Assembly: GCA_030684555.1 (NCBI GenBank)
Contig: JAUXVN010000001.1
Span: 62,001-126,000 of the forward strand
Source of the DNA: Ignavibacteria bacterium
GTDB taxonomy: Bacteria; Bacteroidota; Ignavibacteria; Ignavibacteriales; Ignavibacteriaceae
Length of the DNA stretch: 64,000 nucleotides
Direction of reading: 5' to 3'
Shown here: piece by piece, positions 26,938-46,305 of the stretch
How positions within the stretch are numbered: position 1 is the first letter of the stretch
How the letters are laid out: each line of letters begins with the position of its first letter
Notes under the pieces: generated by a model
Seen by the model: only the letters and a program-made list of their open reading frames with translations
Database searches by the model: none
Told to the model about the DNA's origin: nothing
Program-made: the position numbers and the translations under genes

Positions 26938-27183
26938 TTACTTCATCAATAAGAATTTCTTAGTTGACCTAAAGTGGTTTGCAGATAGTTCATAAAAATA
27001 AACCCCACTGGCAAGTTTTCCTGAGTTAAAATCAACTGTGTAACTTCCCGGTCTTTTTATTTCATTTACTAAAGTTGCAACCGCTTCTCCCAAAATATTA
27101 TAAACCTTTAGTGAGACTAGTCCAGCTTCCGGTATTTGATATTTTATTGTTGTTACCGGATTAAATTCAATTTTAATATTCAC
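26938..27183 (-). pseudogene. Orphan, truncated T9SS type-A C-terminal sorting domain
   Basis: An 81-codon frame that consists only of a T9SS sorting domain (FNPVTTIKYQIPEAGLVSL onward, ending GVYFYELSANHFRSTKKF plus LLMK). It opens with a GTG overlapping the TGA of the upstream lipoprotein gene, in another reading frame, and is preceded at once by an in-frame TGA. It lacks the usual NYPNP entrance and a signal peptide, so it cannot be a secreted cargo by itself. The sequence is closely similar, also in DNA, to the sorting domains at 30.6 and 33.6 kb. Best read as the tail of a lost cargo gene, or as a sorting domain detached from its carrier by deletion. Confidence 0.7.
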
Positions 27184-27923
27184 TCAAGTGAGAATATCCA
27201 TAATTCATCTGTATTATCATTAACAATGAAGAATCTATTTTCTTCAGCATTTACCGCTATCCCCTCAAATTTTTCCATCGGTAATTCGAATCTTTGAATC
27301 ACTCCATTTTCCCTACTCCATTTATACAGTATTTCGCTTTGATCGCTTAGTATATATAAGTTATTATTATTGGAAAATACCATATCTGAAAAATCTTTTG
27401 CGAATGTAATTTCAAATCTCTCTTTTATCTTCAAGTTGGAATCCAATTCAATAAATTCACCCGGGTTTTTCTCTCTAAGCAGAAATAATCTTCCTTCTTT
27501 ATTTTGAGCTACACCTTCCAACCCACTATTTTTTTTACCTGACAAATTGTAAGATTCTTTGCGTAATACATTTCCTTCCAAATCAATTTGCAGAAGTTCT
27601 CTTCTTTTTTCTTCTATAATCCAAAGTGTTTTTTTAGAGACATCCAGTACTATTCCCTCCAAATCTTCTCCGGTATATATTAATTGTTTTAAGATCGTCC
27701 CGACAGTATCAATCATATATACTTTTTGTTCTCTACCGCTTACAATCCAAAAAACATTTTCAGTTTCATCGTAAGTAATTCCCGATGGTTCACCAAAAGG
27801 TAGTTTAATTTTTTTTAATAAACGTAATTCACTGTTTTTATCTGTGGAATCTCCACCGCATCCGGATGCTGTAAGCGAAATTATCCATAAAAAACTAATA
27901 AATAGTGTAAAATTAAATTTCAT
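27180..27923 (-). CDS. SdiA-regulated-like beta-propeller lipoprotein
   Basis: A 247-residue lipoprotein with lipobox TASGC near residue 22 and a propeller of the SdiA-regulated family: LPFGEPSGITYDETENVFW, EDLEGIVLDVSKKTLWII, SGLEGVAQNKEGRLFLL, DFSDMVFSNNNNLYILSD and FEGIAVNAEENRFFIV. The start at 27923 lies eight bases after the end of the reading frame upstream and follows AAAGAAG; an earlier ATG at 27947 would overlap that gene. It probably binds a ligand or ions at the envelope, role unknown. Confidence 0.82.
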   Translation of the reverse strand: MKFNFTLFISFLWIISLTASGCGGDSTDKNSELRLLKKIKLPFGEPSGITYDETENVFWIVSGREQKVYMIDTVGTILKQLIYTGEDLEGIVLDVSKKTLWIIEEKRRELLQIDLEGNVLRKESYNLSGKKNSGLEGVAQNKEGRLFLLREKNPGEFIELDSNLKIKERFEITFAKDFSDMVFSNNNNLYILSDQSEILYKWSRENGVIQRFELPMEKFEGIAVNAEENRFFIVNDNTDELWIFSLE

Positions 27924-27930
27924 GACTTCT

Positions 27931-28605
27931 TTAGATTTTTTCTTCATCGAAGAAGAGATTAATGTTTTTTACACCATTGACATTTCTTAATTCTTCTACA
28001 AATTTGTTTGCATTGCTTTTTCTTTTAAATGAGACATAATATGCATAATCAGCCAAGCTGGAATCCTCGGTTGACTTGATATTAATTATATCATATCTAC
28101 TACAGAAATTATCAAGTACAGAACTAAACTCTTTTGACTTTGAATCATCTAAAAAGAAGGAAAACTGTAGTAAGTATTGCTCTCTACGAAGAGTAAATAA
28201 ATTAGTTTTTGAAAAAATGAATAAAATTGATCCAATAAAGAGTGCCCCTACAATTGCTAAACGGTGATATCCGACTCATGCAGCCATTCCAATTGCTAAA
28301 CCGAAAAAGATATATACAATATCGAGTGTTTCTTTTATTGCCGTTCTAAAACGAATAATTGACATTGCCCCTACTAAACCAAATGCGCGTGCCAAATTAT
28401 TTCCAATAACCATAATTACCAATGTTGTGATTAATGAAAGAAAAATTATTGAATTCACAAAGCTATCTGAATAACCGGGACCTTTATAACTAACTCTATA
28501 AATAAACGTAATAAAAAAACTGCACATCAAGCTGACTAATATGTTTATAACGATCTCAGAAATGGAAGGAGCGAAAACATTAATTGATTGGAGATTTTCT
28601 AACAT
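27931..28605 (-). pseudogene. DUF4956 membrane protein interrupted by an in-frame TGA
   Basis: The minus strand encodes 109 residues of a DUF4956 membrane protein (helices near 15-38, 48-70 and 95-110; block GLVGAMSIIRFRTAIK typical of the family), then TGA at 28276-28278, then 114 further in-frame codons to a TAA at 27931. The second part continues the family: VGYHRLAIVGALFIGSILF is the next helix, followed by a ferredoxin-like C-terminal domain. From memory of the family, the stop falls where it has Gly (GMACGVG-like), and TGA is one base from GGA. TGA is an ordinary stop elsewhere in the window. Nonsense mutation, sequencing error, or readthrough are all possible. It is three bases after the VTC gene. 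Confidence 0.8.
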
Positions 28606-28607
28606 AA

Positions 28608-29369
28608 TTAATTCCTTAAAAGATCCAATTGTTTAGTCCTTGGCAATTGTCTTTTGTTTATATCTATAATATTTGTGTATTTCGAAATGGAAATTCTCTG
28701 CAATCTATGTTTATTAATTAACTGCGGAATCCATGCAGGAATAGTTTGATGGAACTTAATTTCGAGAATAAAACTGTCAGGAAAGACATGTCGATTTTTA
28801 CTCTCTTCATAAATATTATCATAAATTGGTTTGATAGAACCCCTCAAATTTTTATCAAATGTTACGCGCAACTCCAATCCAAATTTTCCAATAAAGGCTT
28901 CTCGTTCATAAACCACTAAACTTGACGAAACTAACTGTTTCGAATAATAGTGAAAGAGAAATTTGCTGGCGTTAAGATAGTTGTCATTCCCATTATTTTG
29001 AGTAAGTAGATATTCTCCGATATTTTTAGAAGAAAGTACATTTTCTAAATTACTAAATAATAATTTTGCTCGATCTTTTGAAATAAAATTTTCATTTTTC
29101 CTTTTAATTTCTAAAAATGCAATACTTTCAGCCCGTCTTTCATTATAAACTCGAACCCTGTACTTATTTCTTTTTTTATAACCTTCGTACTTTTCATTAT
29201 AGCACATCAAATCAGCGGTATCAAAATATATACTTCGTACCGTGTAATCTTTCGTCTCACGTATTTCTGCATAGGGATCATAACGCATATAGTTCAAAAC
29301 CGCTTTACGGATGTTTGACAGCAAATTTAACGGTACTAAATATTTAAATTCTAATCTACTTAGTATCAT
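28608..29369 (-). CDS. VTC-domain protein (polyphosphate polymerase-like)
   Basis: A 253-residue VTC domain of the triphosphate-tunnel superfamily. Tunnel residues are visible on alternating strand positions: E7 and K9 (LEFKYLVP), R45 in YTVRSIYFDT, R71/R73 in YRVRVY, E87/K89 in FLEIKRK, K98/R100 in SKDRAKL, then YEREAF, LRVTFD and ILEIKFH. In yeast Vtc4 this domain makes polyphosphate from ATP; bacterial homologues beside DUF4956 membrane proteins are common but mostly uncharacterised. The gene abuts the HlyD-like gene (TAA directly followed by ATG) and is followed by the DUF4956 frame. Confidence 0.88.
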   Translation of the reverse strand: MILSRLEFKYLVPLNLLSNIRKAVLNYMRYDPYAEIRETKDYTVRSIYFDTADLMCYNEKYEGYKKRNKYRVRVYNERRAESIAFLEIKRKNENFISKDRAKLLFSNLENVLSSKNIGEYLLTQNNGNDNYLNASKFLFHYYSKQLVSSSLVVYEREAFIGKFGLELRVTFDKNLRGSIKPIYDNIYEESKNRHVFPDSFILEIKFHQTIPAWIPQLINKHRLQRISISKYTNIIDINKRQLPRTKQLDLLRN

Positions 29370-30431
29370 TTAATAAAACACATATTTGATTAAATAGTCC
29401 CAAATTGGAATTGTACCAAATTTGATAGTCCCTTGTGCTATCATACCGGGAAGCAATTGTCTCTTGACGTTATTTATCAATATTGTCGCAATAATTACTT
29501 GTTCACTATTCACTATCTTAACTTCTTTTGAGATAGAAAGGATTTTGGCTTTAAATGTTGAGTCAAAGTTATCCAGTTTTATTGAAATCGAATCCCCCTC
29601 ATTAATTGCATTCCTATAGTTAGTCTTTAACGGAATATTAAAAACAACTTTCTCTATTTCAACAATTGACAAAATAGTATCCGGTGAAAATGAAGGGTTT
29701 AATATTCCGCTTATTGGGGAAAGAACAATAAAACTTTTTGATCTGTTGATTAGTGATTCGAGTTCGGATGTTAAAGCTGATATTTTAGATTCGAGAAGTT
29801 TCAAAGTTTCTGGTTTTAAGCCACTTGTTATTGCATCAAGCTGAGATTGGTAAATAGTGATTTCAATTTCAAGCTGCTTGATCTCCCAAAGATCAGTCTC
29901 ATAACTTTCTTCGGTAAGAAAACCTTTTTTGTATAATTGTTCATTACGCTGAAAAGTGTTTTTCTTTTGCCCGAGTTTAGCAACAGCAAATTCTAATCTG
30001 TTTTTTGCTTCTGTTATTAGTGGAAGTTTTTCCCCGGTTTTATTTGCTTCAAGTTCTGCTATTGCAACATTGAGCTCCCCTTTAAGCCTAACAATGTTTT
30101 CCTCAACATCACTCGAGCGAATCATCCCTATTGAATCCCCCGCCGATATTTCATGTTTCTGTTTCATCGATTCAGTAAAAGAAAAAACCATAGATTCTCC
30201 ACGTTGGAATTGAGTAACTCCAAATACGTTAGAGAATCCGAATTCATAATCTATTAGAGATGATGTAAGTTGTCCGTCTGTTCCCTTAACAATTTGCCAT
30301 TTTTTTAAAGGATAAACCTCTCCAAAAATATTTAATGAATGTGGGACTTTTATTCCGCTGATTAATAATAAAAAACAGAGAACACAAAAAAGTAATATTC
30401 CAAAAACTACTTTACTTTCATTTTTTTTCAT
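29370..30431 (-). CDS. HlyD-like membrane fusion (periplasmic adaptor) protein
   Basis: A 353-residue protein with one N-terminal membrane helix (about residues 8-28), a long alpha-hairpin coiled coil (about 110-225, with EAKNRLEFAVAKLGQKK and SKISALTSELESLI), a lipoyl-like half around VLSPISGIL, and a beta-barrel end with INEGDSISIKLDNFDS and LLPGMIAQGTI. These are features of HlyD/EmrA adaptors that bridge an inner-membrane exporter to the outer membrane. No exporter or TolC-like gene is adjacent, which is unusual; its link to the VTC/DUF4956 genes suggests it supports their product. First gene of this operon. Confidence 0.85.
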   Translation of the reverse strand: MKKNESKVVFGILLFCVLCFLLLISGIKVPHSLNIFGEVYPLKKWQIVKGTDGQLTSSLIDYEFGFSNVFGVTQFQRGESMVFSFTESMKQKHEISAGDSIGMIRSSDVEENIVRLKGELNVAIAELEANKTGEKLPLITEAKNRLEFAVAKLGQKKNTFQRNEQLYKKGFLTEESYETDLWEIKQLEIEITIYQSQLDAITSGLKPETLKLLESKISALTSELESLINRSKSFIVLSPISGILNPSFSPDTILSIVEIEKVVFNIPLKTNYRNAINEGDSISIKLDNFDSTFKAKILSISKEVKIVNSEQVIIATILINNVKRQLLPGMIAQGTIKFGTIPIWDYLIKYVFY

Positions 30432-30593: not shown

Positions 30594-33581
30594 CTATTTT
30601 ATCAACACGAATTTCTTGATGGAGTGAAATTCATTCAAACGTAATTCATAAATGTAAACACCGCTAGCAAGTTTTCCTGCATTAAAATCAATGGTGTAAG
30701 CACCTACAGTTTTTATTTCATTTACTAAAGTTGTTACCTCTTCTCCCAATATATTGTATACCTTTAACGAGACTAATCCGGTTTCCGGAATATGATATTT
30801 TATTGTCGTCACAGGATTAAATGGATTTGGGTAGTTTTGATATAGTACGAAATCGTTAACATTTGTTGAAGGTTCTTCCTCAACTCCTAATGGATACTGA
30901 CCAAAATTACTTCTATAAAAACTTCCAGCATAACTTGCTATTCTTCTTGCCTCATAAAATGAACTGAACGGATCATCTTTTCTTCCAACCAAAAAAGTTC
31001 CTATTATTTCCATCGGTTCGTTTGCTTTAAGTGTGAAAGGACCTGTGTTCACCAAAATTCTCTGATCTGTTCCCACAGTATTAAGCCAGCCGGTATTTGC
31101 TGCGGGATTCCCTGAGTACATAAACACAGGATTAACTGAGGAACAATTTTCTCCGATTACACTCCCGTTTGACCATAAACATGGATCGATAAAGTTTCCA
31201 AATCTATCTTTGCCCATTAAATAATTTCTTGCATCTAAACTTGTATTTGCACTTCCTAGATAAGGTTCAATACAGGGTGGGTTATGTATAAATGAAGTCA
31301 TATTCCGGTTACGAGCTCCGGGAAAAATGTCAATTCCTCGTGAACTTCCCTTCCGATTGTAAGCTGTATCAATCGGAGTATCTATTCCTTCATCATAATA
31401 ACCGTTATTATTATTATCGATAAAAGTTTCCCCGGGTTTGTAATAATGTGGTCCTTGTAATATGGAGGTCATCACAGTTGGAGCAGCAACACCAAACGTT
31501 ATGTCCTGAGATTTATGATAAGTAAAACCAACATTTAAAATTGTATCACAACCTACAAGATCATCCCAGCCATCTCCAACATCCGGGTCAGACCAAAATG
31601 AGAAGTAAACGGAATCCATCACTGATGAAACTGTTCCCGTATTAACAATTTTATATCTAATGAATATTGCGTTATTCAAAGCATTTTGTGTGGAATCTGC
31701 ATACGCAAAAACTGTTTGTCCTATTTCTATTCCAAGTGGATTAACATCATTGAATCTCCTAAGAAAACTCGGAACAGCATCATTATAAACACAATAAGTT
31801 GTTACATCACCAATAATATCAGGCTTATCTTCGTTTGGGTCCCAAATCCCGTTCGAGTTAAGATCAACCGGATTGTAAATGCCGTCATTATTTCCATCAT
31901 AAAAATCTGCTCCCATTGTTACAGCAGTTTTCCAATTTTGCCAAGAATTACTGAACGGTGGATCATTTTTTGAAACCACATAAATTTTATTTCGTGGATC
32001 ATCATATGGAACTCCAACTCTGCCCTTTCTATAATCTTGGATTCTTGCCGAACTTGATATTGCATTTGTCCAGATTGTGGAGTTGTTAATACCTGACAAA
32101 TAAAAACCGGCTGAGAACAAAACAGTTACACTATCATAGGTTGCATTTCTAATCCCATTAATTTCAAGATCTGCAATAACACCTGAATTTTCTAATGGTA
32201 ATTTTATTCTGTTTACATCAAGTAGGTAGGTTGAAGTTGCAGGTTCATTCTGAAGTAAAACAACACCTCCATAATGAATAACTTCATTTGAGAATGCGTC
32301 CATAGCTTTAATATAATAAAGAAGGTTATCACCATTTTCCAGATGACCTGTAATTTCAGCACTATAAATTTTATCATTTGCAATGGAATCACCATTAGTA
32401 CCGTTATCATACATGCTTAAGGCAGGCTGTCTTTTTCCGTTAACATCGTAAATTAAATCAACATAAATAATTTGAGATTCATCATCAATCGCCGCCCTGA
32501 AAAAAGCTGTTGAGGGGGTAGAGTTATTCAAATAAGAATCAGTTCGATATACCATTGGAGGTGTATCTCTATCAAAACCATTTAGGAGAAATCCGAACCA
32601 AACTTTGAGACTTTCGGTATTAGTCAATCTGCGTTTAGAAAGAAATGATACAAACGGTTTCCCATTGAATAAGCATATTTTTGGATTTGCATCATAACCT
32701 TTATATAGAGTATAACTTTGAGGGAAATTCCAGGTTGTTCCTTGATCTGATGAAATTAGAAACATGATTTCATTATTAAAATATCCTTCAAATGGAGTGG
32801 GTAATTTTGTGTCATAGATTAAATAAAACTTTCCGGTTGTATCAACAAGACTGACAACTGAATTTATTTGCGAAGGAGAAATGAATTCGATTTTTTCTGT
32901 AATTGTCCAAGTGACACCAAAATCAGTTGAAGTTATTGAAAAAATAGTATCGGGTGTAGTGCCGGTCTTTAGAAAATAGAGTACTTCAATTCCATTTTGT
33001 AATGATACTAAAGAAGGTGAACCGACATTAGGATTATTGAGTAATTTGCTTTCAGTGCTCCACGAAACACCATCGTTACTGCTTAGTATTCTGAATATAC
33101 CAGTACTTGAACCTGTATTTCTTGAATAGATGTATTGAATAGTACCATCTGAAGTTACTAATGGAAAACCTGATTTAGTAATTCTTGAATTTAATCCTGT
33201 GCCGGTAGGTAAGATTATTTTTTCTGACCATGTTAATCCATTATCATCAGAATATTTGTAGTAGACATAAGTATCCCAGAAAAAAACAAATACTCTTCCG
33301 GAACTTGAAATTATTGAGGAGACTTTATTAATAATAGGGTAATTTGTTTCATGCAGCAATAAAGGAGTCGTCCAGGTGAAACCGGCATCGTTGCTTTTAG
33401 TACAAAACAATTTGACAGAGTCAGCCCAGAAATGGAATAGATTACCATTTGAATCGGAAGAAAATGAACTACCTGTTAATGACAAATTAGTGTTTGATAA
33501 ATCAAATGATTTCATCAACATTATTACCTGAGGTGTTAAATTATAATAACAGAAAAATATAAGGAAAATTACCCTTTTCAT
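30594..33581 (-). CDS. T9SS cargo: Asp-box propeller plus shared calcium-loop module
   Basis: A 995-residue secreted protein. After a signal peptide, residues about 25-330 hold a sialidase-like propeller with five Asp boxes of S-x-D-x-G-x-x-W type (SNDAGFTW, SDDNGLTW, SNDGVSW, STDFGVTW, SSDQGTTW). A linker domain (about 345-450) precedes a module of about 450 residues shared with the next gene, including the acidic loops DGNNDGIYNPVDLNSNGIWD that look like calcium sites. It ends in a type-A sorting domain (YQNYPNPFNPVTTIKYHIPE). Catalytic sialidase residues were not identified, so the propeller may only bind. Confidence 0.9.
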   Translation of the reverse strand: MKRVIFLIFFCYYNLTPQVIMLMKSFDLSNTNLSLTGSSFSSDSNGNLFHFWADSVKLFCTKSNDAGFTWTTPLLLHETNYPIINKVSSIISSSGRVFVFFWDTYVYYKYSDDNGLTWSEKIILPTGTGLNSRITKSGFPLVTSDGTIQYIYSRNTGSSTGIFRILSSNDGVSWSTESKLLNNPNVGSPSLVSLQNGIEVLYFLKTGTTPDTIFSITSTDFGVTWTITEKIEFISPSQINSVVSLVDTTGKFYLIYDTKLPTPFEGYFNNEIMFLISSDQGTTWNFPQSYTLYKGYDANPKICLFNGKPFVSFLSKRRLTNTESLKVWFGFLLNGFDRDTPPMVYRTDSYLNNSTPSTAFFRAAIDDESQIIYVDLIYDVNGKRQPALSMYDNGTNGDSIANDKIYSAEITGHLENGDNLLYYIKAMDAFSNEVIHYGGVVLLQNEPATSTYLLDVNRIKLPLENSGVIADLEINGIRNATYDSVTVLFSAGFYLSGINNSTIWTNAISSSARIQDYRKGRVGVPYDDPRNKIYVVSKNDPPFSNSWQNWKTAVTMGADFYDGNNDGIYNPVDLNSNGIWDPNEDKPDIIGDVTTYCVYNDAVPSFLRRFNDVNPLGIEIGQTVFAYADSTQNALNNAIFIRYKIVNTGTVSSVMDSVYFSFWSDPDVGDGWDDLVGCDTILNVGFTYHKSQDITFGVAAPTVMTSILQGPHYYKPGETFIDNNNNGYYDEGIDTPIDTAYNRKGSSRGIDIFPGARNRNMTSFIHNPPCIEPYLGSANTSLDARNYLMGKDRFGNFIDPCLWSNGSVIGENCSSVNPVFMYSGNPAANTGWLNTVGTDQRILVNTGPFTLKANEPMEIIGTFLVGRKDDPFSSFYEARRIASYAGSFYRSNFGQYPLGVEEEPSTNVNDFVLYQNYPNPFNPVTTIKYHIPETGLVSLKVYNILGEEVTTLVNEIKTVGAYTIDFNAGKLASGVYIYELRLNEFHSIKKFVLIK

Positions 33582-33608: not shown

Positions 33609-35354
33609 CTACTTAAGAATAATTAGTTTTTTACTACTACTTTTGAAGGAAGTTTTTAATTCATATATATAAACTCCACTTACAAGATTTCCTGCATTAA
33701 AATCAATTGTGTAACTACCTGCTGTTTTTATTTCATTTACTATAGTTGTAACCACTTCTCCCAAAATATTGTATACCTTTAGAGAAACTAATCCGGTTTC
33801 CGGAATTTGATATTTTATTTTCGTTACAGGATTAAACGGATTTGGGTAGTTTTGGTATAGTTCAAAATTACTAACATTCATTGAAGGTTCTTCCTCAACT
33901 CCTAATGGATACTGACCAAAATTACTTCTATAATAACTTCCAACATAACTTGCTATTCTTCTTGCTTCATAAAATGAAGAAAAAGGATCATCTTTTCTTC
34001 CTACAAGCAGTGCTCCTATAATTTCAACCGGTTCATTTTGTTTTAATTTGAAAGGACCAGTGTTAACCATTGTTCTTTGATCTGTTCCCATAGTGTTAAG
34101 CCAGCCGGTATTTGCAGCCGGATTGCCTGAGTACATAAATACGGGATTAACTGCGGAACAATTTACTCCGGTCACGCTACCGAATGGCCAGTTACATGGA
34201 TCAATTGGGGTTCCAAATTTATTTTTACCTAACAAATAACTTCTTGCTTCTAAACTTGTATTGGGGTCTCCTTGAGAAGGGTGACTCGACATGTAATGTA
34301 TAAATGAAGACATATTTTGATTACGCGCACCGGGCATGATTTCAATTCCTCTTAAAATCCCTTTTCTATTGTACGCTGTATCAATCGGAGTATCTATTCC
34401 GGCATCATAAATTCCATTACTATTATTATCGATAAAAGTTTCCCCCGGCATGTAATAATAGGGTCCTTGTAAGATTGATGTTAAAACTGTTGGAGCAGCA
34501 TTGCCAAACTCACCATCCGGTGCATTGTGATAGACAAATCCTGCATCGAGTAAAGTATCGCAACCGACAAGGTCATCAACATAATTCCCAACATCAGGAT
34601 CAGCCCAAAATGAGAAATAAACTGAATCCATTACTGATGAGACTGTTCCTCGATTTACAATTTTATAACGAACGAAAATTGTATTATTTAATGTGTTTTG
34701 GGAAGAGTCTGAATATGCAAAAATGGTTTGACGAATTTCAATTCCTTTTGGAGTTACATCATTAAATCTTCTTAAGCTGGTATCAACTCCATCATTGTAA
34801 ACACAATAAGTTGTAATGTCTCCTAATATATCGGGTTTATCTTCGTTTGCGTCCCAAATACCATTTGAGTTAAGATCAACAGGGTTGTAGATACCATCAT
34901 TATTTCCATCATAAAAATCAGCCCCAATATCTACAGCATCCTTCCATGACTGCCATGAATTACCAAAAGGTGTATCTGATGCAAAAACGGCATAAACTAA
35001 ATTTCTCGGATCACCAGGTTCTGTATTAACTTGACCTTTTAGATAATCTTGAATACGTGAAGCAGAAGCAATTGCGTTAGTCCACATCGTACCGTTTGAA
35101 TAACCAGATAATAAGAAACCTGCTGAAAAAAAGACAGTCTTGCTATCGTACCTTCCTCCTTCAACACCATTTATTACAACATCAGCAATAACACCTGAAT
35201 TGTTTATTGGTAATTTTAATCTGTTAACATCAATTAAAAAAGTTTCTGAGGTAGTTGCTGAATTGTTATTTATGCGGTTTTTATTCTGCTCTTTGTTTTT
35301 TTGAGCGATGCTAAACGAGGTGACGAGAATAATGAGAAAAACTAAATTTTTCAT
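33609..35354 (-). CDS. T9SS cargo, paralogue of the neighbouring gene without the propeller
   Basis: A 581-residue secreted protein: signal peptide (MKNLVFLIILVTSFSIAQ), then a short Asn-rich stretch, then the same module as in the 995-residue neighbour, with many identical blocks (for example FSAGF, DGNNDGIYNPVDLNSNGIWD, SSVMDSVYFSFW, DDLVGCDT, GETFIDNN, YNRKG) and the same spacing. It ends with a type-A sorting domain. The two genes are 27 bases apart on one strand, so this is a tandem duplication with loss or gain of the Asp-box part. Function of the module is unknown. Confidence 0.9.
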   Translation of the reverse strand: MKNLVFLIILVTSFSIAQKNKEQNKNRINNNSATTSETFLIDVNRLKLPINNSGVIADVVINGVEGGRYDSKTVFFSAGFLLSGYSNGTMWTNAIASASRIQDYLKGQVNTEPGDPRNLVYAVFASDTPFGNSWQSWKDAVDIGADFYDGNNDGIYNPVDLNSNGIWDANEDKPDILGDITTYCVYNDGVDTSLRRFNDVTPKGIEIRQTIFAYSDSSQNTLNNTIFVRYKIVNRGTVSSVMDSVYFSFWADPDVGNYVDDLVGCDTLLDAGFVYHNAPDGEFGNAAPTVLTSILQGPYYYMPGETFIDNNSNGIYDAGIDTPIDTAYNRKGILRGIEIMPGARNQNMSSFIHYMSSHPSQGDPNTSLEARSYLLGKNKFGTPIDPCNWPFGSVTGVNCSAVNPVFMYSGNPAANTGWLNTMGTDQRTMVNTGPFKLKQNEPVEIIGALLVGRKDDPFSSFYEARRIASYVGSYYRSNFGQYPLGVEEEPSMNVSNFELYQNYPNPFNPVTKIKYQIPETGLVSLKVYNILGEVVTTIVNEIKTAGSYTIDFNAGNLVSGVYIYELKTSFKSSSKKLIILK

Positions 35355-44106: not shown

Positions 44107-46305
44107 TTACCTAAGTAATGGCGCAATTACAAGCGAAACTACTGACATAAGTTTTAGTAAAATATTTAAGGACGGACCTGAAGTATCCTTGAATGGATCC
44201 CCGACTGTATCACCGACAACAGCCGCTTTATGGGCATCAGAACCTTTGAAATACTTTTGTCCGTTAATTTCAATACCTTCTTCAAACATTTTCTTTGCAT
44301 TATCCCATGCACCACCTGCATTAGCTTGAAAAATAGCCATTAAAACACCTGTTACTGTTACACCAGCAATCAACCCGCCTAACATTTCTTTACCACCGGC
44401 AAAACCTGTTACTACCGGAACTATCACAGCCATTAATCCTGGAAGAACCATTTGTCTGATTGCTGATTTTGTTGATATTTCAACACATTTACCATACTCA
44501 GCTTTTCCGTCAGCTTCGTGGAAAATTTTTTGATCGGCTTCGGACCAATCTTTTTGCTCTTTACCATCATTCTTTTTCATCACATCTAAAGCAGCTCTTA
44601 ATGCAGGTATGGTATTAAATTGTCTTCTAACTTCTTCAATCATTGCCATTGCAGCTCGACCGACTGCCTGCATTGCTAACGCAGAGAAAAGAAATGGTAT
44701 CATTGAACCTATTAATAAACCTGCCATAACAACTGCTTTTGAAATGTCAATTGATTTCAAATCCGCTGAAACCATAAATGCACCAAAAAGAGCTAACGCA
44801 GTTAAGGCAGCAGAACCGATTGCAAAACCTTTTCCAATTGCAGCTGTCGTATTTCCAACCGCATCTAATTTATCTGTGCGTTCACGTACTTCTTTTGGTA
44901 GTTCAGCCATTTCGGCTATACCACCGGCGTTATCAGAAATTGGACCATAAGCATCAACTGCTAATTGAATTCCGAGAATTGAAAGCATACCTACAGCTGC
45001 AATTGCAATCCCGTATAATCCACCAAAATTGAACGAAAGAATTATTGCAACTGCAATAACAAGCGTAGGTAAAGCTGTAGACATCATACCGACACCTAAT
45101 CCGGCAATAATATTTGTTGCAGCACCTGTTATTGACTGTCTCGCTATATTAAGGACTGGTCTTTTACCACTAGCCGTATAATATTCTGTAATCATTCCAA
45201 TCATCGCACCTGACATAATACCAACTACAGTTGAAAAAAAGATATTCATTGAATAGTAAACATTTCCATCACCACTCCAATCATAAAGTGGATCTTTATA
45301 TGTCCAGGTCTCGGGTAACATCCATTTAATTAAAAACCATGCAGAAATCACCATTAAAACTCCCGCAACAATATTTCCAAAATTTAATGCTTTTTGTGGA
45401 TCGCCACCTTCTTTAACTTTAACGAAAAAAGTTCCGATGATTGACATGACTATTCCAACACCTGCAATCATTAAAGGAAGTAGAACTGCTCCTAATCCGC
45501 TAAAATGATCCTTAAATTCCGGAAGAACAAAAAACGCTGCACCTAAAACCATTGTTCCAATTATTGAACCAACATATGATTCAAACAAATCTGCCCCCAT
45601 ACCTGCAACGTCACCAACATTATCACCAACATTATCTGCAATAGTAGCCGGGTTTAATGGATGATCTTCAGGGATTCCGGCTTCAACTTTACCAACGAGA
45701 TCAGCACCAACATCGGCAGCTTTAGTATAAATACCTCCACCAACTCTTGCAAAAAGAGCTATTGATGATGCACCAAATGAAAATCCGGTAATTACAACGA
45801 TTACTTTGCTTAATTCTGCTTCAGTTGAAAGACCGAACATACTTCCGTAAATTAGTAGAAGTAATCCAAGTCCTAGAACTCCGAGTCCGACAACACCCAT
45901 ACCCATTACTGAGCCACCTGTAAAAGCGATTTCAAGAGCTTTACCTAAACTGGTTCGGGCAGCATTTGTTGTTCGCACATTAGCTTTTGTTGCAACGCGC
46001 ATTCCAATATAACCTGCAAGCGCTGAACAAAATGCACCGACAATAAATGAAACGCCGACAAGCCAAGAAGAATTCTCAGCACTAAAACCACTATATGCCA
46101 ATAAAAGGGCAACAACAAGCACAAAAATAGCAAGTACTCGATATTCGGCTTTTAAGAATGCCATTGCACCTTCAGCTATATGTCCGGCAATTTTTTTCAT
46201 TTTATCATTTCCGGGATCTTGTTTATTAATCCAGGAAGACCGGATGAATGTAAAAATTAGAGCCAACACACCAAACGCAGGAATCAAGAAAATAATTTGT
46301 TCCAT
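44107..46305 (-). CDS. hppA: Membrane-bound pyrophosphatase (ion pump)
   Basis: A 732-residue, about 16-helix pump that couples PPi hydrolysis to H+ or Na+ transport. The catalytic loop [20 protein letters not shown] and [11 protein letters not shown], and a second site with [18 protein letters not shown], are intact. In [10 protein letters not shown] the key position is Ala rather than Lys, which by family rules points to the potassium-dependent class. Na+ versus H+ specificity is not resolved. Follows pth by 20 bases. Confidence 0.96.

What the first reader, a model, noticed from the sequence alone, without database searches (positions are those of the whole stretch)
27180..30431. VTC / DUF4956 / HlyD-adaptor / propeller-lipoprotein locus: a candidate envelope polymer system
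Four genes with almost no spacing: an RND/ABC-type HlyD adaptor without a transporter, a VTC domain with intact tunnel residues, a DUF4956 membrane protein and an SdiA-regulated-like lipoprotein. VTC and DUF4956 often pair in bacteria, but joining with a HlyD adaptor is not a pattern I know. It could make and export polyphosphate or another nucleotide-derived polymer across the envelope. This is inference from domains and order.
Basis: partly seen in the sequence, partly recalled or inferred. Interest (0 to 1): 0.6.

Follow-up and report, generated by a model that had tools for sequence, protein, structure and literature searches.

The report
Conserved polymerase-plus-exporter operon, locally damaged
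A polyphosphate-polymerase-like enzyme, a membrane protein and an exporter adaptor form an operon shared by many bacterial phyla, probably to push a phosphate polymer out through the cell envelope; in this particular genome the membrane-protein gene carries a stop codon, so this copy may be broken.

Summary
This copy is a very recent nonsense allele or a sequencing error. The order HlyD-VTC-DUF4956 is not an accident. It is found in 66 of 80 named related loci from many phyla of the FCB group, with spacings of a few bases. In 396 phylum genomes, 29 of 30 strong hits to this HlyD family lie directly upstream of VTC; the thirtieth lies upstream of DUF4956. VTC keeps every Vtc4 tunnel residue I checked except one conservative Arg-to-Lys change. 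The HlyD hairpin tip carries the TolC-docking RLS/RLT motif. VTC-less relatives show HlyD-DUF4956-TolC and DUF4956-HlyD-TolC operons. I therefore read DUF4956, a distant MgtC relative, as the inner-membrane part of a tripartite exporter. VTC-DUF4956-CotH sets are already reported beside Gram-positive pel operons; the HlyD/TolC extension appears undescribed. Polyphosphate as cargo is inference.

The parts
29370..30431 (-). HlyD-family periplasmic adaptor: N-terminal TM helix, barrel-sandwich and beta-barrel domains, four-helix coiled-coil hairpin; 353 aa, intact
   Evidence: AF2 model pLDDT 91; Foldseek best hits MacA, EmrA, AcrA, MexA
29913..29948 (-). TolC-docking RLT motif at the hairpin tip (R162-x3-L166-x6-T173)
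   Evidence: R in 66/66, L in 60/66, S/T in 59/66 relatives; motif defined in PMC3391258
28608..29369 (-). VTC-domain polyphosphate polymerase-like enzyme, 253 aa, intact; K9, R71, R73, K89, K98, Y154, R156, R168, E203, K230 align with Vtc4 K200, R264, R266, K281, K294, Y359, R361, R373, E426, K458; Vtc4 R253 is K60 here
27931..28605 (-). DUF4956 membrane protein (five hydrophobic helices plus ACT/ferredoxin-like C-terminal domain, distant MgtC kin), interrupted at codon 110
28276..28278 (-). In-frame TGA where both nearest relatives have GGA (Gly) and all aligned relatives have Gly
27180..27911 (-). SdiA-regulated/YjiK-like beta-propeller lipoprotein; start at 27911 fits relatives better than 27947 (which overlaps the DUF4956 end)
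   Evidence: optional part of the operon

Best explanation
The operon encodes a trans-envelope polymer exporter. VTC makes a chain, most likely polyphosphate from ATP, on the cytoplasmic side. DUF4956, a distant MgtC relative, is the inner-membrane part that receives the chain, filling the slot that ABC, RND or MFS transporters hold in other tripartite pumps. The HlyD-type adaptor bridges the periplasm and docks, by its RLS/RLT tip, onto a TolC-family channel encoded elsewhere in the genome. The product probably serves surface CotH-type kinases, as phosphate donor, substrate or matrix, since CotH almost always accompanies VTC. The SdiA-like lipoprotein is an accessory. In this genome the machine is probably off, or only recently lost, because DUF4956 has a nonsense codon, unless that codon is a sequencing error. 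Shown: gene order, conservation, residues, motif, TolC and CotH linkage, the stop codon. Inferred: the assembly, the direction of transport, the cargo and the link with CotH.
For: Order HlyD-VTC-DUF4956 in 66 of 80 named loci; 29 of 30 strong HlyD-family hits directly upstream of VTC, the other upstream of DUF4956. VTC tunnel residues kept; the R264/R266/E426 triple change impairs yeast Vtc4 (PMC9911596). RLS/RLT tip motif. HlyD-DUF4956-OEP operons in two genomes and DUF4956-HlyD-OEP operons in three, none with VTC. Independent pairing with envelope parts in other VTC clades: a second HlyD downstream of DUF4956, DUF2490 outer-membrane barrels, Porin_O_P-like barrels. CotH in 55 of 57 VTC genomes against 80 of 339 others, and beside the operon in the nearest relatives. 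PPK1 present as well, so VTC is not the housekeeping enzyme. Own genome holds eight OEP/TolC ORFs and three CotH matches.
Against: No biochemical data on any bacterial VTC-DUF4956 pair were found. DUF4956-HlyD-TolC systems occur without VTC, so their cargo need not be polyphosphate. Many VTC-DUF4956 pairs in the same phylum lack HlyD. No PDB structure matches the DUF4956 membrane part, so a pore is not shown. In the window the DUF4956 gene is interrupted, no CotH flanks the operon and no TolC gene is adjacent. Two VTC-bearing genomes of one family lack CotH.
Confidence: 0.45

Rival explanations
1. DUF4956-HlyD-TolC is an exporter for something other than polyphosphate (a protein, a CotH/LTD-type surface substrate, or a glycan). 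VTC supplies a regulatory or energising phosphate product rather than the cargo.
For: Six genomes hold DUF4956 with HlyD, five of them also with an OEP gene in the operon, and no VTC anywhere; all six have CotH. VTC-DUF4956-CotH sets are also found beside pel polysaccharide operons (PMC7112168).
Against: In most FCB genomes VTC sits between HlyD and DUF4956 with almost no spacing and intact tunnel residues, which suggests its product feeds the membrane partners. VTC in yeast couples synthesis to membrane passage (PMC9911596).
Confidence: 0.3
2. VTC and DUF4956 deliver polyphosphate only into the periplasm or retain it at the membrane. HlyD is a structural or sensory partner and no outer-membrane passage occurs.
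For: No TolC gene is adjacent in VTC-bearing loci, and many VTC-DUF4956 pairs occur without HlyD.
Against: The TolC-docking tip motif is kept in most of 66 sequences, and TolC is in the operon in the VTC-less relatives.
Confidence: 0.2
3. In this genome the locus is a decaying remnant: DUF4956 is a pseudogene and the neighbourhood has been rearranged. (This concerns the window copy and is compatible with the main explanation of the family.)
For: In-frame TGA at an invariant glycine; an orphan T9SS sorting tail lies right behind the operon; CotH is not adjacent, unlike the two nearest relatives.
Against: The half behind the stop is still under strong constraint (pN 0.12, pS 0.94 against L031), HlyD, VTC and the propeller are intact, and a draft-assembly error cannot be excluded.
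Confidence: 0.4
4. The gene grouping is a chance neighbourhood without functional meaning.
For: None found.
Against: Conservation across phyla with spacings of a few bases, and clustering of architectures on the VTC tree far beyond shuffles.
Confidence: 0.01

Closest known systems
Eukaryotic VTC complex (Vtc1/3/4), polyphosphate polymerase coupled to membrane translocation
   Same: VTC catalytic domain with the same tunnel residues; synthesis presumably coupled to a membrane partner
   Different: No SPX domain and no Vtc1-type (DUF202) membrane domain; the membrane partner is DUF4956, and an envelope adaptor is added
VTC-DUF4956-CotH(-DUF4832) accessory set next to Gram-positive pel operons (PMC7112168), and the VTC/'tubulin'/CotH cluster of Clostridium perfringens NELoc-2 (PMC2879425)
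   Same: VTC beside a membrane protein of about 225 aa (DUF4956 in the pel set), with CotH nearby; same core
   Different: Single-membrane organisms without HlyD/TolC; here a periplasmic adaptor is part of the operon
Tripartite efflux pumps and type I secretion (MacAB-TolC, AcrAB-TolC, HlyBD-TolC)
   Same: Adaptor fold, coiled-coil hairpin and RLS/RLT TolC-docking motif
   Different: No ABC, RND or MFS transporter in the operon; DUF4956 stands in the inner-membrane slot
MgtC/SapB family
   Same: DUF4956 members hit MgtC weakly in 78 of 82 cases; membrane helices plus C-terminal ACT-like domain
   Different: Scores below the MgtC cut-off; different gene partners

Membership tests
VTC polyphosphate polymerase domain (PF09359) | Significant match to the domain over its full length | tested here: met
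   136 bits, positions 2-229 of 235, cut-off 23
VTC polyphosphate polymerase domain (PF09359) | Basic tunnel and metal-binding residues of Vtc4 | tested here: met
   K200, R264, R266, K281, K294, Y359, R361, R373, E426, K458 all aligned to identical residues, R253 replaced by K60
VTC polyphosphate polymerase domain (PF09359) | Polyphosphate synthesis from ATP | not testable with these tools
   needs enzyme assay
HlyD/MFP periplasmic adaptor | Adaptor fold with coiled-coil hairpin | tested here: met
   AF2 pLDDT 91; Foldseek MacA E 1e-13; Pfam HlyD_3 just over cut-off
HlyD/MFP periplasmic adaptor | RLS/RLT TolC-docking motif | tested here: met
   motif from PMC3391258
Classical tripartite pump or type I secretion system | Cognate ABC, RND or MFS transporter in the operon | tested here: not met
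   none recurs in the neighbourhoods
Classical tripartite pump or type I secretion system | TolC-family channel in the operon | tested here: inconclusive
   absent in the window operon; present in five VTC-less relatives' operons; eight OEP ORFs elsewhere in the own genome
VTC-DUF4956-CotH set | VTC adjacent to DUF4956 | tested here: met
   (DUF4956 interrupted)
VTC-DUF4956-CotH set | CotH kinase gene adjacent | tested here: not met
   upstream gene is BNR_2/T9SS; CotH matches lie on other contigs, two of them on C97; adjacent in nearest relative L031
MgtC/SapB | Match above family cut-off | tested here: not met
   18.1 bits against 31.4; NCBIfam MgtC/SapB model 32 against 214
Pel polysaccharide system | pelDEADAFG genes next to the set | not tested
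   none among the window proteins examined; the genome was not searched for pel

The most novel reading that the evidence does not exclude
DUF4956 defines a new class of inner-membrane component for TolC-dependent tripartite export, and the HlyD-VTC-DUF4956 operon is a dedicated machine that makes polyphosphate in the cytoplasm and delivers it to the cell surface, where it serves secreted CotH kinases that have no ATP supply of their own.
Probability: 0.2. Interest if true: 0.85.

Novelty: new variant of a known kind. Interest (0 to 1): 0.6.

Why it matters
How bacteria place polyphosphate on their surface, and what extracellular kinases such as CotH use as phosphate donor, are open questions. 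A conserved operon that joins a polyphosphate-polymerase-like enzyme to a TolC-type export path, and that nearly always occurs in genomes with CotH, makes both directly testable. It would also give a role to DUF4956, a domain without assigned function.

Tried and rejected
Chance gene order: rejected. Alternative genetic code for the TGA: no evidence; the reading TGA=Gly was used only to align and fold the protein, and a lone TGA at an otherwise invariant glycine fits a point change GGA to TGA. VTC as a substitute for PPK: rejected, PPK1 is in 356 of 396 genomes including this one. My first CotH profile was contaminated by T9SS sorting tails; I rebuilt it from the kinase domain, and it then under-called, so Pfam was used for key cases. 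A profile scan with the HlyD alignment failed for lack of conserved stretches, so DUF4956 was used instead. Foldseek of the DUF4956 model hit only its ACT/ferredoxin-like domain. Literature searches found no paper joining DUF4956, HlyD and CotH.

Full report
Observation. The four genes lie on the minus strand as described: HlyD adaptor 30431-29370, VTC 29369-28608, DUF4956 from 28605, propeller lipoprotein to 27180. The window is in a 4.3 Mb draft genome in 152 contigs. Its nearest relatives by sequence are Ignavibacteria metagenome-assembled genomes. The genome has one VTC and one DUF4956 copy.

The DUF4956 gene is interrupted. The ORF ends after 109 codons at TGA (28278-28276); the same frame then stays open to codon 224. 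Reading through raises the Pfam match from 40.3 to 53.1 bits and makes it full length, and the genome search reports the same hit with one TGA inside. The position is Gly in all 20 relatives first aligned and in the other 81 rows of an 82-row alignment (the window row was read TGA=Gly). The two nearest relatives have GGA. Behind the stop the sequence still differs mostly at silent sites (pN 0.124, pS 0.938 against L031), so the change is very recent or is a sequencing error. Truncation would remove the last predicted membrane helix and the whole C-terminal domain.

Conservation. In relatives of the window, VTC genes are mostly preceded by the same HlyD family and followed by DUF4956. A scan of public genome contigs with DUF4956 gave 80 named loci. 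HlyD-VTC-DUF4956 stands in 64 of the 78 counted, plus L116 and L117. Titles include Ignavibacteria, Melioribacteraceae, Zixibacteria, Calditrichia, KSB1, Latescibacterota, Krumholzibacteriota, Neomarinimicrobiota and Bacteroidetes. Median spacings are 2 bases (HlyD-VTC) and 9 bases (VTC-DUF4956). Single metagenome bins may be misassigned, but the spread is broad. In 396 genomes of the phylum, 30 HlyD hits exceed 95 bits; comparing coordinates, 29 lie directly upstream of VTC and the thirtieth (G206) upstream of DUF4956. On a VTC tree (quick method, LG+G4 without mixture model) the architectures cluster strongly, and a second clade has a different HlyD behind DUF4956 instead. Other VTC-DUF4956 pairs are followed by a DUF2490 barrel or a Porin_O_P-like barrel.

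VTC. The profile of this family finds yeast Vtc4 structures at E 8e-22. Mapping gives K9=K200, R71=R264, R73=R266, K89=K281, K98=K294, Y154=Y359, R156=R361, R168=R373, E203=E426, K230=K458; Vtc4 R253 corresponds to Lys 60. The triple change R264A/R266A/E426N impairs yeast Vtc4 (PMC9911596). That the remaining residues line the tunnel is from my knowledge of the Vtc4 structure, not tested here.

HlyD. The model (pLDDT 91) has a membrane helix and a four-helix coiled-coil hairpin and matches MacA, EmrA, AcrA and MexA. Its tip carries R-x3-L-x6-T, the RLT form of the TolC-docking motif shown for E. coli HlyD (PMC3391258); in 66 relatives R is invariant, L is kept in 60, S/T in 59. No ABC, RND or MFS transporter recurs in the neighbourhoods. 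The own genome holds 16 OEP domain hits in eight ORFs.

DUF4956. It is weakly related to MgtC (78 of 82 members, best E 1e-5, below cut-off for the window protein), with five hydrophobic helices and an ACT/ferredoxin-like C-terminal domain. In one family of the phylum I found HlyD-DUF4956-OEP (G206, G457), HlyD-DUF4956 (G549), and LTD-DUF4956-HlyD-OEP (G428, G445; G433 with DUF4956-HlyD-OEP) operons. The OEP matches of the last three are weak (E 5e-3 to 4e-5, one of them over the Pfam cut-off), those of G206 and G457 strong. All six genomes lack VTC and have CotH. This places DUF4956 in the inner-membrane position of a HlyD/TolC exporter, with VTC as an added polymerase.

CotH. In the 396-genome sample 55 of 57 VTC genomes encode CotH, against 80 of 339 others; by genus 37 of 38 VTC genera, against 55 of the other 133. 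These genomes are related, so the Fisher values (2e-27, 6e-11) overstate independence. In the family of G206, 8 of 10 genomes with a strong DUF4956 have CotH against 35 of 141 others (p 7e-4); two VTC-bearing genomes there lack it. CotH genes lie next to the operon in the nearest relatives (L026 and L031; Pfam on L031) but not in the window, whose three CotH matches are on other contigs, two of them on C97. CotH is a Ser/Thr kinase that polyphosphorylates a spore coat protein (abstract of PMC7821199). VTC-DUF4956-CotH sets beside Gram-positive pel operons are published (PMC7112168), and a VTC/'tubulin'/CotH cluster in Clostridium perfringens (PMC2879425). I found no paper describing the HlyD or TolC extension, in a library that holds only open-licence papers.

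Mechanism. Best supported: VTC makes a polymer, DUF4956 passes it through the inner membrane, HlyD and a TolC-family channel carry it out, and CotH kinases on the surface use or modify it. Shown here are order, conservation, residues, motif and linkages. Assembly, direction and cargo are inferred. The main doubt is cargo, because the exporter part also occurs without VTC. In this genome the machine is probably inactive if the stop codon is real.

Verdict. It is a new variant of a known kind: the VTC-DUF4956-CotH set joined to a tripartite exporter.

Noticed in passing
window 26938-27183 (-): An orphan T9SS C-terminal sorting domain (FNPVTTIKYQIPEAGLVSLKVYNILGEAV...KKFLLMK, then stop) lies directly behind the propeller gene without any protein body in front of it, suggesting a local deletion or rearrangement.
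   Followed up: partly
window 30594-33581 and 33609-35354: Two adjacent T9SS-sorted proteins that share long near-identical stretches (paralogues); the first carries an extra N-terminal BNR_2 domain.
   Followed up: no
L024 6946-7994: In another relative (G056, a single-contig genome) the HlyD gene itself is split into two ORFs, so the operon is damaged independently there.
   Followed up: partly
L227 5362-8890, L228 3732-6648, L229 5373-8872: VTC-less operons DUF4956 - HlyD-like - OEP, two of them with a small lamin-tail-domain protein in front (L227 by Pfam, L229 by similar sequence): an exporter architecture that seems undescribed.
   Followed up: yes
L138, L140, L142, L143 (one VTC subclade; L140, L142, L143 titled WOR-3 or Stahlbacteria): Here the HlyD gene is missing and other secreted proteins precede VTC; the L140 one is a beta-propeller (SBBP) protein with a T9SS tail, and L142 has a Porin_O_P gene behind DUF4956.
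   Followed up: partly
window 44107-46305: Membrane H+-translocating pyrophosphatase gene, another phosphate-energy enzyme in the same window.
   Followed up: no
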